This document shows positions 1,012 through 39,098 of a stretch of 54,374 nt of DNA, piece by piece; the stretch's first letter is position 1, and every line of letters starts with the position of its first letter. Position numbers and translations under genes: made by a program. The stretch lies in NCBI GenBank assembly GCA_002354655.1, contig DELY01000054.1, positions 1 to 54,374 on the forward strand, read 5' to 3'. Source of the DNA: Pseudomonas sp. UBA2684 (lineage in GTDB: Bacteria > Pseudomonadota > Gammaproteobacteria > Pseudomonadales > Pseudomonadaceae). The notes under the pieces are model-generated. The model was not told the origin of the DNA. It saw only the letters and a list, made by a program, of their open reading frames with translations, and searched no databases.

Positions 1012-1752
1012 ATGAATGGACTGCGTACCTGCTGCTTGGCGCTGGTTTTGCTGTCGTTACTGCCGTTGGGCGTGGCGGCGCAGACTTTGCGTCTGGTGGC
1101 CGATCCTTGGCCGCCGTTCAATGATCAGACCTTGCTGAACAACGGTGTGGCCTCGGATCTGGTCAGCACGGCATTGACCCGTGCCGGCTATGTCACGAGC
1201 TATGTCGAGGTGCCGTGGGAACGGGCGGTGCGTGGTTTGCAGCGGGCCGATTACGATGTGCTGATCAATGCCTGGTACAGCGATGAGCGCGCGACCTTTG
1301 GCTACTATTCCCAGCCGTATCTGATCAACCGTATTCGGTTTTTGCAGCGCAAGGGCGCCAATATCAAATTCGAGCAGTTACCCGATCTGTATCCGTACAG
1401 CATCGCGGTGGTGCGCGGCTATGCCTATTCCAGCGAGTTCGATCAGGATACTCGGCTCAGCAAGGTCGGTGTGCTCAGCTTCGAAACCGGCGCGCGGATG
1501 CTGCACGCCAAGCGCGTTGGGTTGACCCTGGAAGACGAGTTTGTCGCGCGTTATCACTTGGGCCGCGAGTTGAGCGGCATCCGCGATGAGTTGGAGTTTT
1601 TGCCGCAGCCCTTGAGCGAGAACGGCTTGCATATTCTGGTGAGCCGCTTGCACCCCGAGTATCGGCAAATCGCCGAGGCCTTTAATCGGGCCATCGAGGC
1701 GATGCGCGCCGATGGCAGCTATGCCGAGATATTGCAGCGCCACGGGTTGTAG
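1012..1752 (+). CDS. Periplasmic substrate-binding protein, family 3 (amino-acid type)
   Basis: A 246-residue exported protein. Residues 1-23 are a signal peptide (hydrophobic core ending GVAA, cleavage before QTLRL). The mature part opens with LRLVADPWPPFN, the typical first strand of family-3 solute-binding proteins, followed by the LVSTALTRAGY helix and PWERAVRGLQRADYDVLINAW, matching the fold of polar amino-acid ABC receptors. Length is normal for the family. No permease or ATPase gene is adjacent, so it is an orphan receptor; in Pseudomonas many such orphans have unknown ligands. It converges on the diguanylate cyclase gene with only 13 bases between stops and no hairpin in between. Family assignment is firm, substrate unknown. 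Confidence 0.8.
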   Translation: MNGLRTCCLALVLLSLLPLGVAAQTLRLVADPWPPFNDQTLLNNGVASDLVSTALTRAGYVTSYVEVPWERAVRGLQRADYDVLINAWYSDERATFGYYSQPYLINRIRFLQRKGANIKFEQLPDLYPYSIAVVRGYAYSSEFDQDTRLSKVGVLSFETGARMLHAKRVGLTLEDEFVARYHLGRELSGIRDELEFLPQPLSENGLHILVSRLHPEYRQIAEAFNRAIEAMRADGSYAEILQRHGL

Positions 1753-1765
1753 CGGCGCGGCGAGT

Positions 1766-3001
1766 TTACTGCCAGTGGCTGCGCCCGCGGCCTTGGCGTT
1801 TGGCCTGATAGAGACGCTGGTCGGCTTCGTGCAGCAGGCTTTCGAGGTCGTCCGGGGGGCCGTGGTAGATGCCGGCGCTAAACGATAGGGGCGGTGCGCC
1901 GATGGCGTATTTCAGGCTGGCGCACTGCTCGCGCAGGCGGTCGAGGGCCTGGCTCAGGCTGGCGCCGTTCTGTTGGCTGATCATGGCGAACTCTTCGCCG
2001 CCGAGGCGGCCGATCAGTGCATCGGGAAAGGCGTGGGTGAAGGCGCGGGCGAAGGCGATCAGCGCCGCATCGCCGCTGGCATGGCCGTGTTCGTCGTTGA
2101 TGCGTTTGAAGAAATCCAGGTCGAGCATGGCCACGCTGAGCGTATGACCGCCACGTTGCGCCTGCTGGAACTGTTTCAGGCCCTGTTCGTAAAAGGCCCG
2201 GCGGTTGTTCAGGCCGGTCAGCGCATCGAATTGCGCGGCTTGTTTCAGGGCGCGTAGCAGGTCGCGGCGTTCCAGCGTGGACATGACCCGGCAATTCAGT
2301 TCTTCCGGGCAGAATGGCTTGCGCAGGAAATCGTCGGCGCCGTGCTTGATGAACTTGGCGCTGAGCGAGCCTTTGGCATCGGCGGACAGGCCGAGGATGA
2401 TCAGTTCGCTGCGCTTCATCTGCTGGCGCAGCACTTTGACCAGTTCGAAGCCACTGAGCCCGGGCATGCTGTGGTCAACCACCAGCAGGTCGATGTCTGG
2501 CTGCGCCTGGAGAATCTGCAGGGCTTCGTCGCCGTCGCGGGCGTCGATGATCTGGAAGCGGTGCGGGGTCAGCACGTGGCGGATGTAGTGGCGCGTGGCT
2601 TCGGAGTCCTCGGCGATGAGGATCTTTACCTGGCTGTTGCTTTCCAGGCGGTGCAGCAGGCGGAAGGCGTACTCGTAGGAGTGCTGGCTTTCCTTGAGCA
2701 CGTAATCGACCACGCCCTTGAGCAACAGCTCGTCGCGCCGCTGCTCGTTGTAGGAGCCGCTGAGCACGATGCACGGCAGGTTGTACTGCATCACCAGGTC
2801 GACGCTCTCGCCGTTCGGCGCATCCGGCAGGTGCAGGTCGACGATGGCGGCGAAGAACAGGCTGGCGGAGGTTTCCAGCATCACTTCGGCCTCGGCCAGC
2901 GAGGCGCAGAAGATCGGTTGCAGGTCGTGTTCCTGACGGAACAGGTGGTCGAGAATTTTCAGCACCAAGGGGCTGTCTTCGATGACCAGAATAGTGCGCA
3001 C
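1766..3001 (-). CDS. Response regulator with two REC domains and a GGDEF domain (diguanylate cyclase)
   Basis: A 411-residue protein that probably makes cyclic di-GMP. The start is the GTG of VRTILVIEDS, 5 bases after an AGGAGG; an upstream ATG 32 codons earlier would add a non-conserved basic tail. Domain order: REC1 about 1-120 with acidic pair E8/D9 and phospho-acceptor D55 (AAIVDLHLPD); REC2 about 125-245 with E131/D132, D176 (LLVVDHSMPG) and K228 (RKPF); GGDEF about 255-411 with the active-site motif GGEEF at 334-338 and LTGLNNRRAF before it. The inhibitory RxxD site expected just upstream of GGEEF is not present (FPDALIGRL), so product inhibition through the I-site is probably lost. It lies 52 bases downstream of dbpA on the same strand. 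No histidine kinase gene is in the window. Confidence 0.88.
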   Translation of the reverse strand: MRTILVIEDSPLVLKILDHLFRQEHDLQPIFCASLAEAEVMLETSASLFFAAIVDLHLPDAPNGESVDLVMQYNLPCIVLSGSYNEQRRDELLLKGVVDYVLKESQHSYEYAFRLLHRLESNSQVKILIAEDSEATRHYIRHVLTPHRFQIIDARDGDEALQILQAQPDIDLLVVDHSMPGLSGFELVKVLRQQMKRSELIILGLSADAKGSLSAKFIKHGADDFLRKPFCPEELNCRVMSTLERRDLLRALKQAAQFDALTGLNNRRAFYEQGLKQFQQAQRGGHTLSVAMLDLDFFKRINDEHGHASGDAALIAFARAFTHAFPDALIGRLGGEEFAMISQQNGASLSQALDRLREQCASLKYAIGAPPLSFSAGIYHGPPDDLESLLHEADQRLYQAKRQGRGRSHWQ

Positions 3002-3053
3002 TGGAACCTCCTGTACCTGTGGCCGCCTCCGTGCGGCGTGCCTGTCCGTTAAC

Positions 3054-4433
3054 TTATAGCGTGCGTACGCGTAGCGAGCGGCCTTTGATCTTGCCATCGC
3101 TCAGGCGCTTGAGCGCTTGCGTGGCCATGCTGCGCTCGACGGCGACAAACGCCTGGAAGTCGAAGATCGCGATTTTGCCGACGTGGGCGCCAGGAATGCC
3201 AGCATCGCCGGTGAGCGCGCCGAGGATGTCGCCGGGGCGCAGTTTGTCTTTGCGTCCGGCGCCGATGCACAGGGTGATCATCGGCGGTTGCAGCGGCTCG
3301 CCGGCTTTGGCTTTGAGGCTGTTCAGCGGGTGCCAGTTGAGCGGGCTTTGCTGCAAGGTCTCGATGGCTTGGGCGCGATGGCCTTCGGCGGGTGCGACCA
3401 GGCTCATGGCCATGCCTTTTTCGCCGGCGCGCCCGGTGCGGCCGACGCGGTGGATGTGGATTTCCGAATCGCGCGCCAGTTCGACGTTGATCACCATGTC
3501 CAGGGCGTCGATGTCCAGGCCGCGCGCGGCGACATCGGTGGCTACCAGCACCGACAGGCTGCGGTTGGCGAACATCGCCAGCACCTGATCGCGGTCGCGT
3601 TGCTCCAGGTCGCCATTCAGCGCTGCGGCGGAAATGCCGTTGGCGGCGAGGTGGTCGACCACTTCCTGGCACTGCTGCTTGGTGAAGCAGAAGGCCACGC
3701 AGGATTGCGGGCGGAAGCTGGCGAGCAGCTTGACCACCGCGTCGAGGCGTTCTTCGGGGGCGATTTCGTAGAAGCGCTGCTCGATCTGCGTGTCGTCGTG
3801 CATGGCCTCGGCTTTGACCTGCTGCGGGTTGCGCATGAAGGTGGCGCTGAGCTGCTTGATGCCGGCCGGGTAGGTGGCGGAAAACAGCAGGGTTTGGCGC
3901 TTGCTCGGGGTCTGCCCGATGATCTCGGCGATGCTGTCGTAGAAGCCCATGTCGAGCATGCGGTCGGCTTCGTCGAGCACCAGGGTGTTGAGGCCGTCGA
4001 GCTTCAGCGTGCCTTTGCTGAGGTGCTGCTGAATCCGCCCCGGAGTGCCGACGATGATCTGCGCGCCGTGTTCCAGCGAGCCGATTTGCGGGCCGAAGGA
4101 TACGCCGCCGCACAGGGTCAGCACTTTGATGTTGTCGGCACCGCGCGCCAGGCGGCGGATTTCCTTGGCTACCTGGTCGGCCAGCTCACGGGTTGGGCAC
4201 AGCACCAGAGCCTGGCAGCCGAAGTAGCGCGGGTTCAAGGGGTTGAGCAGGCCGATGCCGAAGGCCGCGGTCTTGCCGCTGCCGGTCTTGGCCTGGGCGA
4301 TCAGGTCCATGCCCTTGAGCATCACCGGCAGGCTCTGCGCTTGGATCGGGGTCATCGCGGTATAACCGAGGGACTCGAGGTTCGCCAGCATGGCGGCGGA
4401 CAGCGGCAGTGAGGAGAACGCGGTGTTGGTCAC
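3054..4433 (-). CDS. dbpA: ATP-dependent RNA helicase DbpA
   Basis: A 459-residue DEAD-box helicase that in characterised bacteria acts on 23S rRNA during large-subunit assembly. Visible motifs: Q motif near GYTAMTPIQ (24-31), Walker A AKTGSGKT (48-55), PTREL (80-84), DEAD (154-157), SAT (LFSATYP, about 185), RGLD and HRVGRTGRAG in the second RecA-like lobe. The last roughly 75 residues form the DbpA-type RNA-binding domain, with MITLCIGAGRKDKLRPGDI at its start, which separates DbpA from RhlB, RhlE and SrmB. Length fits the family. A REC-GGDEF gene follows 52 bases downstream on the same strand and may be cotranscribed. Confidence 0.93.
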   Translation of the reverse strand: MTNTAFSSLPLSAAMLANLESLGYTAMTPIQAQSLPVMLKGMDLIAQAKTGSGKTAAFGIGLLNPLNPRYFGCQALVLCPTRELADQVAKEIRRLARGADNIKVLTLCGGVSFGPQIGSLEHGAQIIVGTPGRIQQHLSKGTLKLDGLNTLVLDEADRMLDMGFYDSIAEIIGQTPSKRQTLLFSATYPAGIKQLSATFMRNPQQVKAEAMHDDTQIEQRFYEIAPEERLDAVVKLLASFRPQSCVAFCFTKQQCQEVVDHLAANGISAAALNGDLEQRDRDQVLAMFANRSLSVLVATDVAARGLDIDALDMVINVELARDSEIHIHRVGRTGRAGEKGMAMSLVAPAEGHRAQAIETLQQSPLNWHPLNSLKAKAGEPLQPPMITLCIGAGRKDKLRPGDILGALTGDAGIPGAHVGKIAIFDFQAFVAVERSMATQALKRLSDGKIKGRSLRVRTL

Positions 4434-4564: not shown

Positions 4565-5329
4565 GCAGCGTTCCCGAGCGCTATCGGTTGGTAGGGCGGA
4601 CATGCCGAAGGCTTGTCCGCCGTTTGCGTGTAGGCGGTGGACAAGGCTGCGCCATGTCCCCCCTACGGCGATGATCTGGCAACGCTTCAGCGTTGTGGGG
4701 TGCCGTGCGGCGGTGGGGCGTAGCGGTTCCGAGTGCTATCGGTTGGTAGGGCGGACATGCCGAAGGCTTGTCCGCCGTTTGCGTGCTGGTGGTGGACAAG
4801 GCATGCACCATGTCCACCCTACGGCGACGCTCTGGCAAAGTTTCAGCGTTGTGGGGTGCCGTGCGGCGGCGGGGCTTAGCGGTTCCGAGTGCTATCGGGT
4901 TGTAGGGCGGACATGCCGAAGGTTTGTCCGCCGTTCGCGTGTAGGCGGTGGACAAGGCTGCGCCATGTCCACCCTACGGCGATGATCTGGTAAAGCTTCA
5001 GCGTTGCGCGGTGCCGTGCGTTGGTGGGGCGCAGCGTTCCCGAACGCTATCGGTTGGTAGGGCGGACATGCCGAAGGCTTGTCCGCCGTTTGCGTGTAGG
5101 CGGTGGACAAGGCTGCGCCATGTCCACCCTACGGCGACGATCTGGCAAAGTTTCAGCATTGCGCGGTGGTGGGGCGCAGCGGTTCCGAGAGCCATCGGTT
5201 GGTAGGGCGGACATGCCGAAGGCTTGTCCGCCGTTTGCGTGCTGGTGGTGGACAAGGCTGCGCCATGTCCACCCTACGGCGGCGCTCTGGTAAAGCTTCA
5301 GCGTTGCGCGGTGCCGCGCGTTGGTGCGC
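4565..5329. repeat. Five-copy tandem array of about 155-bp units, each carrying one REPIN and a copy of the betA 3' tail
   Basis: Units begin at about 4565, 4720, 4876, 5031 and 5176 (periods 155, 156, 155, 145). Each unit contains one REPIN: 4591-4666, 4746-4822, 4902-4977, 5057-5132 and 5202-5277. Each REPIN runs from GTAGGGCGGACATG to ATGTCCACCCTAC and holds two short palindromes, a C-type arm (GGCGGACA...TGTCCGCC) and a T-type arm (GGTGGACA...TGTCCACC). Between REPINs the unit carries CTGGYAAAGYTTCAGC followed by GTTGYGSGGTGCCG, which matches the last codons and stop of betA (5298-5329) closely. The fifth unit is the real betA end. This is not a CRISPR array: the whole unit is repeated and there are no unique spacers. 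Confidence 0.9.
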
Positions 5330-38353: not shown

Positions 38354-39098
38354 GGTGGACAAGGCTACGCCATGTCCACCCTACTAAAAGCCAAGCGCAA
38401 CCGTAGGGCGGACATGGCGCAGCCTTGTCCGCCGTTTAGAGCGTTTACCCGCTAATCGCCACCCGGCACCTCGGCATCCCTATCCCCCGCCCACCCCAAC
38501 GGATAAATACCTTCGCGCACGGCGCGGTGAAAGCTGGAGTAGGGCCAATCCTCTACGCGCTCGACCCAGCCGTGTTTGGCCGGGTTGAAATGCAGGTAAT
38601 CGAAGTGCCGCTGAAAGTCGTCTTCGTCGCGGATCAGGTGCTCCCAGTAACGCCGTTGCCAGATCCCCGCTTCACCTCTTTTGCCGAAGCGCGCGGCTAA
38701 GGGCAGGCCGCGACAGAACAGTTGCTTGAGCACCATCCAGCGTGTGGCGTAGTCGCTGTCGCCAGGTGGTAGCGTCCACAGGCAATGCATATGTTCGGGG
38801 AGCACTACCCAGGCGTCGATCGCGAAAGGATGTCGCTCTTTGGTCAGGGCAACGACGCGGCGCAGCAGCGCAATTTGGCGAACCAGCAGGTCGCTGCGGC
38901 GATCTTGCAGATTGACGGTGAAAAAGTAGGTGCCGCCCGGCACCCAGGCGCGACGGTAGTTCGGCATGGACGCATCCGTGTGTCCGTGGGTTGATTTGGG
39001 AGTGTAGTCAGGATTTTTGGTGGACAAGGCTCTGCCATGTCCACCCTACTAAAAGCCAAGCGTAACCGTAGGGCGGACATGGCGGAGCCTTGTCCGCC
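38354..39098. mobile_element. REP-bounded RAYT element
   Basis: Two near-identical 80-bp blocks flank the transposase gene: 38354-38433 and 39019-39098, differing at about 4 positions. Each block is T-type arm (GGTGGACA...CCACCCTAC), an 18-base spacer (TAAAAGCCAAGCG[CT]AACC) and C-type arm (GTAGGGCGGACAT...CCGCC). Seen from the gene, its inner flanks are GTAGGGCGGACAT... at 38403-38433 and ...TGTCCACCCTAC at 39019-39049, the same outward order as a normal REPIN, with the gene in place of the short spacer. Confidence 0.88.
38452..38967 (-). CDS. REP-associated tyrosine transposase (RAYT, Y1 HUH family)
   Basis: A 171-residue transposase-like protein related to IS200/IS605 TnpA, thought to act on REP palindromes as single-stranded DNA. 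The start MPNYRRAWVPGGTYFFTVNL is typical of RAYTs; a 20-codon upstream extension would begin inside the right REP and is rejected. HUH motif H59-M-H61 (LPEHMHCLW), conserved WQRRYWEH (103-110), and catalytic Tyr124 in FDYLHFNPAKHGWV. All catalytic residues appear intact, so it may be active. It lies between gbcB and the threonine aldolase gene and is unrelated to the metabolic cluster. Confidence 0.92.
   Translation of the reverse strand: MPNYRRAWVPGGTYFFTVNLQDRRSDLLVRQIALLRRVVALTKERHPFAIDAWVVLPEHMHCLWTLPPGDSDYATRWMVLKQLFCRGLPLAARFGKRGEAGIWQRRYWEHLIRDEDDFQRHFDYLHFNPAKHGWVERVEDWPYSSFHRAVREGIYPLGWAGDRDAEVPGGD

What the first reader, a model, noticed from the sequence alone, without database searches (positions are those of the whole stretch)
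38354..39098. A RAYT gene occupies the position of a REPIN spacer, and the whole is bracketed by 80-bp direct repeats
Seen: a complete Y1-type transposase (HMH, Tyr124) is flanked at 38403-38433 and 39019-39049 by two REP arms in the same inverted order and C-type/T-type combination as an ordinary REPIN. Outside them the same arms recur so that 38354-38433 and 39019-39098 are 80-bp direct repeats with about 4 differences. Known: RAYTs are associated with REP sequences, and REPINs are thought to move non-autonomously using them. Inference: this looks like an 'autonomous REPIN' with the transposase gene between its arms, or the product of recombination between REPINs. The 18-base spacer TAAAAGCCAAGCG[CT]AACC shared by both outer blocks may mark the junction of a circular or tandem intermediate.
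Basis: partly seen in the sequence, partly recalled or inferred. Interest (0 to 1): 0.8.

Follow-up and report, generated by a model that had tools for sequence, protein, structure and literature searches.

The report
Ordinary RAYT gene between REP repeats
A bacterial gene for a repeat-handling enzyme (a RAYT) sits between copies of the short hairpin repeats it is thought to spread; the arrangement is real and neat, but it is the standard, published layout of such genes rather than a new kind of element.

Summary
An intact RAYT (CDS 38452-38967, minus strand) lies between two GTAG-outward REP arms, and outside them the pattern repeats, so 38354-38433 and 39019-39098 are 80-bp direct repeats with exactly 4 differences.

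"REP - rayt - inverted REP" is the published layout of rayt genes (Nunvar 2010, PMC2817692), later called a REPtron. That paper reports flanking BIMEs at one third of rayt genes and proposes a circular intermediate. In my RAYT loci (window included), REP upstream and inverted REP downstream occur in 37 of 50 with arms detected on both sides, the reverse in 0; long direct repeats span the gene in 25 of 110.

Specific to this locus: the 18-base spacer occurs exactly only in these two blocks, so they share a local origin. The gbcB-ltaE interval lacks a RAYT in 14 of 14 other-species intervals examined whole. REP sites cluster around the gene. This suggests lineage-specific arrival plus local amplification. 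Self-transposition as an "autonomous REPIN" is not shown.

The parts
38452..38967 (-). RAYT (TnpAREP) coding sequence, 171 aa, ATG at 38967, stop at 38452-38454
   Evidence: NCBIfam NF047646 191.3 bits; PDB 4er8 E=9.8e-58; longer TTG-started ORF to 39027
38354..38384 (-). T-type REP arm, outer left (downstream of the RAYT), GTAG at 38384
   Evidence: hairpin
38385..38402 (.). 18-base inter-arm spacer TAAAAGCCAAGCGCAACC, exact only in the two RAYT blocks
38403..38433 (+). C-type REP arm, inner left, 18 nt after the RAYT stop codon; GTAG faces away from the gene
   Evidence: hairpin
39019..39049 (-). T-type REP arm, inner right, 51 nt upstream of the RAYT ATG; GTAG faces away from the gene
39050..39067 (.). 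18-base inter-arm spacer TAAAAGCCAAGCGTAACC
39068..39098 (+). C-type REP arm, outer right
38354..38433 (.). 80-bp direct repeat, copy 1 (T' - 18 - C, GTAG ends inward)
   Evidence: 76 of 80 identical to copy 2; folds as one long hairpin
39019..39098 (.). 80-bp direct repeat, copy 2; period 665 bp

Best explanation
This is a REPtron: a chromosomal RAYT (HuH Y1 transposase, TnpAREP), single-copy for its REP type, delimited by its own REP sequences. Here it lies inside a BIME-like module whose inter-REP segment is the gene itself. Established for homologues: the protein cuts and joins single-stranded GTAG-hairpin REPs. Inferred here: the protein acts on the 126-plus dispersed arms and has driven their spread as REPINs; the paired 80-bp blocks were made by local duplication of one block (RAYT-driven BIME amplification, or recombination or slippage); the gene arrived at the gbcB-ltaE site in this lineage and new REPs were laid down preferentially nearby.
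For: RAYT identity. Genome-wide cognate arms, with 23 ordinary REPINs of 63-88 bp among exact arms. Conserved polarity: of 112 distinct RAYT loci (window included) with 200-bp flanks, 50 had arms detected on both sides: 37 REP upstream and inverted REP downstream, 0 the reverse, 13 same-direction; shuffled flanks gave 0.02 arms per flank against 0.88 real (117 loci before deduplication). Direct repeats of at least 60 bp and 80% identity across the gene in 25 of 110 loci (window included) against 0 of 220 mismatched-flank pairs; any direct repeat at E<=1e-3 in 68 of 110 against 17 of 220. A sister-clade RAYT (L053, P. delhiensis; clade) has the same iREP-spacer-REP-RAYT-iREP-spacer-REP order (by eye). 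Spacer unique to the locus. No RAYT in 14 of 14 other-species gbcB-ltaE intervals examined whole. REP sites near the gene: 8 of 79 independent sites in 1.1% of the genome, 0.89 expected, p=3e-6. Published layout and BIME association: PMC2817692; REPtron: PMC8266576, PMC6006769, PMC3733652 passages.
Against: No activity is shown here. My arm detector found no arm on either side at 21 of 112 distinct loci and on one side only at 41; it is strict (it misses visible arms at L045), but some loci may truly lack them. The arm pair at the gene (same core on both) differs from 21 of 23 ordinary REPINs. G136 has 25 arms of this type with no cognate RAYT seen. The REP clustering test is post hoc: the window was singled out by a reader partly for its repeats, and the contig ends limit the view.
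Confidence: 0.92

Rival explanations
1. Autonomous REPIN: the C arm - RAYT - T arm unit (or the 665-nt block-plus-gene unit) still transposes as a whole, in an IS200/IS605-like way, through a single-stranded circle.
For: Each strand carries two same-direction GTAG hairpins 665 nt apart around the gene, as well as the inverted inner pair. The gbcB-ltaE interval lacks the gene in 14 of 14 other-species intervals examined whole. None of 116 other fetched RAYT loci (flanks of up to 6 kb held; a few overlap) contains gbcB or ltaE.
Against: One copy only in this genome, which is a 97% complete draft. The closest RAYTs elsewhere are about 72% identical, so no recent copy is seen, though only one genome per species was searched. 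Published surveys report no sign of unit mobility (PMC2817692, PMC6006769, PMC8266576 passages). Absence in other species is explained equally well by horizontal acquisition or by loss.
Confidence: 0.1
2. Recombination product: one block pre-existed or came with the gene, and the second arose by homologous recombination or replication slippage (for example integration of a block-plus-gene circle into a resident block), with no RAYT catalysis.
For: The two blocks share a spacer found exactly nowhere else in the genome. Tandem REPIN arrays with periods of about 103-157 bp exist elsewhere in the genome. An exact 1314-bp tandem duplication of a RAYT region is seen in genome G215.
Against: It does not explain the conserved outward polarity of the inner arms across relatives. 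It is largely compatible with the best explanation and differs only in how the second block formed.
Confidence: 0.35
3. Coincidence: two independent REPIN insertions happened to land on either side of a RAYT.
For: The genome has many arms, and this 54-kb contig is dense in them. Six other inward pairs with gaps of 15-41 nt exist in the genome.
Against: The blocks are inside-out relative to REPINs and share a locus-unique spacer; comparable arrangements recur in relatives.
Confidence: 0.02

Closest known systems
[not shown]
   Same: [quoted passage not shown] two REP variants; cognate REPs abundant in the genome; REP pairs on both sides, as reported for E. coli.
   Different: Only details: an 18-base spacer unique to this locus, and a REP sequence nearly confined to this genome among the 398 searched.
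BIME basic module
   Same: REPs in alternating orientation with two inter-REP segments; direct repetition of same-strand REPs.
   Different: One inter-REP segment is the whole RAYT gene. Nunvar reports 3' ends of rayt genes captured in BIMEs and a rayt directly associated with a BIME.
REPIN (Bertels and Rainey 2011, PMC3116915)
   Same: Inner arms have GTAG outward, as in a REPIN, one C and one T.
   Different: 585 nt between the arms instead of a short spacer; arms share the same core; single copy.
IS200/IS605 insertion sequences
   Same: Related catalytic domain and hairpin-bordered gene (PMC8266576 passages).
   Different: Single copy, no evidence of transposition as a unit.

Membership tests
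RAYT / TnpAREP | REP-associated Y1 transposase domain above curated cut-off | tested here: met
   NF047646, 191.3 bits, cut-off 80; 4er8 TnpArep E=9.8e-58; no Pfam hit at 0.001
RAYT / TnpAREP | HuH motif and catalytic tyrosine intact | tested here: met
   HMH; Y124 aligns with E. coli Y115 (the role of Y115 is recalled)
REPtron | gene flanked by REPs in inverted orientation | tested here: met
REPtron | same REPs dispersed in the genome | tested here: met
   126 exact arms, 80 sites at 1-kb merging; 199 with up to 1 mismatch
REPtron | RAYT single copy for its REP type | tested here: met
   next RAYT in genome 66% identical with other REPs; draft genome, 97% complete
REPtron | protein cuts and joins cognate single-stranded REPs | not testable with these tools
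   shown for homologues (PMC8266576 passages)
REPIN | inverted REP pair separated by a short spacer, many copies | tested here: not met
   spacing of 585 nt, one copy of the gene-bearing unit
IS200/IS605 insertion sequence | several near-identical copies or moved copies | tested here: not met
   one copy
Autonomous mobile unit | filled and empty sites within one species | not tested
   only one genome per species is held; between species the interval lacks the gene in 14 of 14 examined whole

The most novel reading that the evidence does not exclude
The 665-bp block-plus-gene unit is a still-mobile or recently mobile REPtron that entered the gbcB-ltaE site in this lineage through a circle whose junction is the unique 18-base spacer, and then seeded the surrounding REPs. 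It would be a rare case of a RAYT moving together with its REPs.
Probability: 0.1. Interest if true: 0.55.

Novelty: new member of a known kind. Interest (0 to 1): 0.2.

Why it matters
It adds one clean example of a known arrangement with a nearly genome-specific REP type, a locus-specific spacer and REP density highest around the gene. That makes it a tractable case for asking how RAYTs reach new sites and how the block repeats form. It does not change the picture of RAYT biology.

Tried and rejected
Ordinary REPINs flanking the gene by chance: rejected, because the blocks are inside-out and share a unique spacer. The spacer as a genome-wide junction mark: rejected, because it has no exact copy elsewhere; of 14 matches with up to 3 mismatches (control 1), the nearest besides the two blocks has 2 mismatches (C43:160058, locus L229) and no arm of this type around it. 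Empty-site alignment base by base: not attempted; the relatives' intergenic stretches printed looked too different, and the genomes searched are one per species. G136's RAYTs as drivers of its 25 window-type REPs: not supported, because they have other REPs. No structure prediction was run; a solved homologue made it unnecessary.

Limits of counts: one search lists 100 of 199 arms, so the full exact list was rebuilt (126, with a slightly narrower pattern, gives 125). The tree used 111 distinct proteins out of 120 hits; one duplicate locus, rows with internal stops, under 140 aa, or identical were dropped. Direct-repeat counts used 110 of 114 distinct loci; 4 had short flanks. The RAYT loci are the best-scoring hits, not a random sample, and are related to each other. 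Of the 29 other-species gbcB/ltaE loci, 11 held both genes and 3 more intervals were fetched whole; for the remaining ones only the fetched flank (up to 1.5 kb) was searched. each name 398 genomes of the genus; I take them as the same draw because the handles coincide where listed.

Full report
OBSERVATION. Reading left to right: T-arm reversed (38354-38384), 18 nt, C-arm (38403-38433), RAYT on the minus strand (38452-38967), T-arm reversed (39019-39049), 18 nt, C-arm (39068-39098). The blocks differ at 4 of 80 positions. The repeat finder stretches them to 108 nt at 86%, but the extra left part matches at only 15 of 26 bases, which 130 of 5000 random pairs of window places equal in extension score, and the right side matches at 6 of 30. 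The period is 665 bp. The genome's ordinary REPINs have GTAG on the outside (23 pairs of exact arms, 63-88 bp), the two 80-bp blocks have GTAG on the inside, and the gene occupies the position of a REPIN spacer. Six other inward pairs with gaps of 15-41 nt exist in the genome, so inward blocks as such are not unique. One detail differs from an ordinary REPIN: both arms next to the gene have the GGC core, while 21 of 23 ordinary pairs have opposite cores.

PROTEIN. The 171-aa product matches the NCBIfam model for REP-associated tyrosine transposases (191.3 bits) and the solved E. coli TnpAREP (4er8; that the chain is from E. coli is recalled), with the HMH motif and the tyrosine conserved. Pfam gave no hit at 0.001. 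The gene lies between gbcB (glycine betaine monooxygenase reductase, NF058606) and a beta-eliminating-lyase family protein (PF01212; written ltaE here for short).

SPREAD OF THE REPEATS. There are 126 exact arms (56 C, 70 T) in the 4.83-Mb draft genome and none for the reversed control. The window, which is one whole contig and 1.1% of the genome, holds 24 of them. After merging within 1 kb and leaving out the gene's own site, 8 of 79 sites lie here against 0.89 expected (p=3e-6); the next densest 54-kb stretch has 5. This test is post hoc. Nunvar et al. describe such crowding near a rayt in some genomes and read it as production of REPs after arrival of the gene (PMC2817692, passages).

COMPARISON. 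In 398 genomes of the genus (own included), 51 hold a RAYT of this family at E<=1e-40, the closest being about 72% identical. The arm type GTAGGGYGGACAKGSC is found 125 times here, 25 times in G136, and once or twice in 16 others; 380 of 398 have none. Of the 50 other RAYT-bearing genomes, 10 have any; of the 347 without, 7 have any. G136's own RAYTs (58% and 54%) are flanked by different REPs, so its copies lack a visible cognate enzyme (weaker relatives and assembly gaps were not excluded).

ARCHITECTURE IN RELATIVES. I took 120 RAYT hits (114 distinct, the window's own included) and looked for GT(A/G)G hairpins in 200-bp flanks. Of 112 usable distinct loci, 37 had REP upstream and inverted REP downstream, 8 and 5 had both arms in the same direction, 0 had the reverse order, 41 had an arm on one side only and 21 had none. 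The detector is strict (0.02 arms per shuffled flank against 0.88 real) and misses some arms visible by eye, as at L045. Direct repeats of at least 60 bp and 80% across the gene occur in 25 of 110 loci and in 0 of 220 mismatched flank pairs; any direct repeat at E<=1e-3 in 68 of 110 and 17 of 220. The window RAYT groups with those of P. jinjuensis, P. delhiensis, P. nicosulfuronedens and P. aeruginosa PA7 (support 99/86). The P. delhiensis locus shows, by eye, the same order of arms around the gene as part of a longer array (L053). The own genome's second RAYT (C16, 66%) has the order iREP-REP-RAYT-iREP with two other REP types.

SITE HISTORY. Among 29 other-species loci fetched for the gbcB/ltaE region, 11 contain both genes (gaps 129-1213 bp), and three further intervals were fetched whole. 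None of these 14 contains a RAYT, nor do the flanks held at the other loci. None of 116 other fetched RAYT loci contains gbcB or ltaE in the flank held. The gene thus looks lineage-specific at this site, by acquisition, by movement, or by loss elsewhere; I cannot tell which, because no second strain of the species is held.

MECHANISM. Shown for homologues: TnpAREP cuts and rejoins single-stranded REPs carrying GTAG, and the complement (iREP) shows no binding or cleavage (PMC8266576, passages). Inferred here: since each strand carries two same-direction REPs 665 nt apart around the gene, the enzyme could in principle act at both ends of either strand. Two directly repeated REPs with an inverted one between them is the starting module of the rolling-circle BIME model in PMC2817692 (Discussion read). 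The locus-unique spacer says the two blocks share a local origin, by that route or by ordinary recombination. Nothing here shows that the gene-bearing unit moves.

NOVELTY. [quoted passage not shown] PMC6006769 and PMC8266576 call this a REPtron and say that it does not appear to transpose as a unit, or that there is no evidence of tnpAREP mobility (passages). [quoted passage not shown] PMC3116915 suggests REPINs derive from REPs that flanked an ancestral element (passages). The finding is a new member of this kind. The paper searches were made; Ton-Hoang 2012, cited there for the word REPtron, was not read.

Noticed in passing
window 4591-5277: Tandem array of REPINs with a period of about 145-156 bp (five C arms with T partners); similar arrays at G000 C1:8841-9326 (about 157 bp), C4:81000-81610 (about 145 bp) and C37:38080-38317 (about 103 bp).
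   Followed up: partly
G000:C16:64194-64694 (L035, L220): Second RAYT of the same genome, 66% identical, with two different REP types (GTAGGGTGGACAACGC and GTAGGGTGGATGACGC); a pattern covering both has 19 exact copies genome-wide.
   Followed up: partly
L247 (G215:C1:5006500-5011500), 1180-3806: Two identical RAYTs in an exact 1314-bp tandem duplication.
   Followed up: no
G136 (L234-L243): 25 copies of the window-type REP in a genome whose two RAYTs are flanked by other REPs; possibly leftovers of a lost RAYT.
   Followed up: partly
L062: A RAYT in a MAG labelled Planctomycetaceae falls among Stutzerimonas RAYTs, probably a mis-binned contig.
   Followed up: no
L245 (G301:C38:3400-7300): Two different RAYTs (66% and 68% to the window's) lie next to each other with shared REP types.
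   Followed up: no
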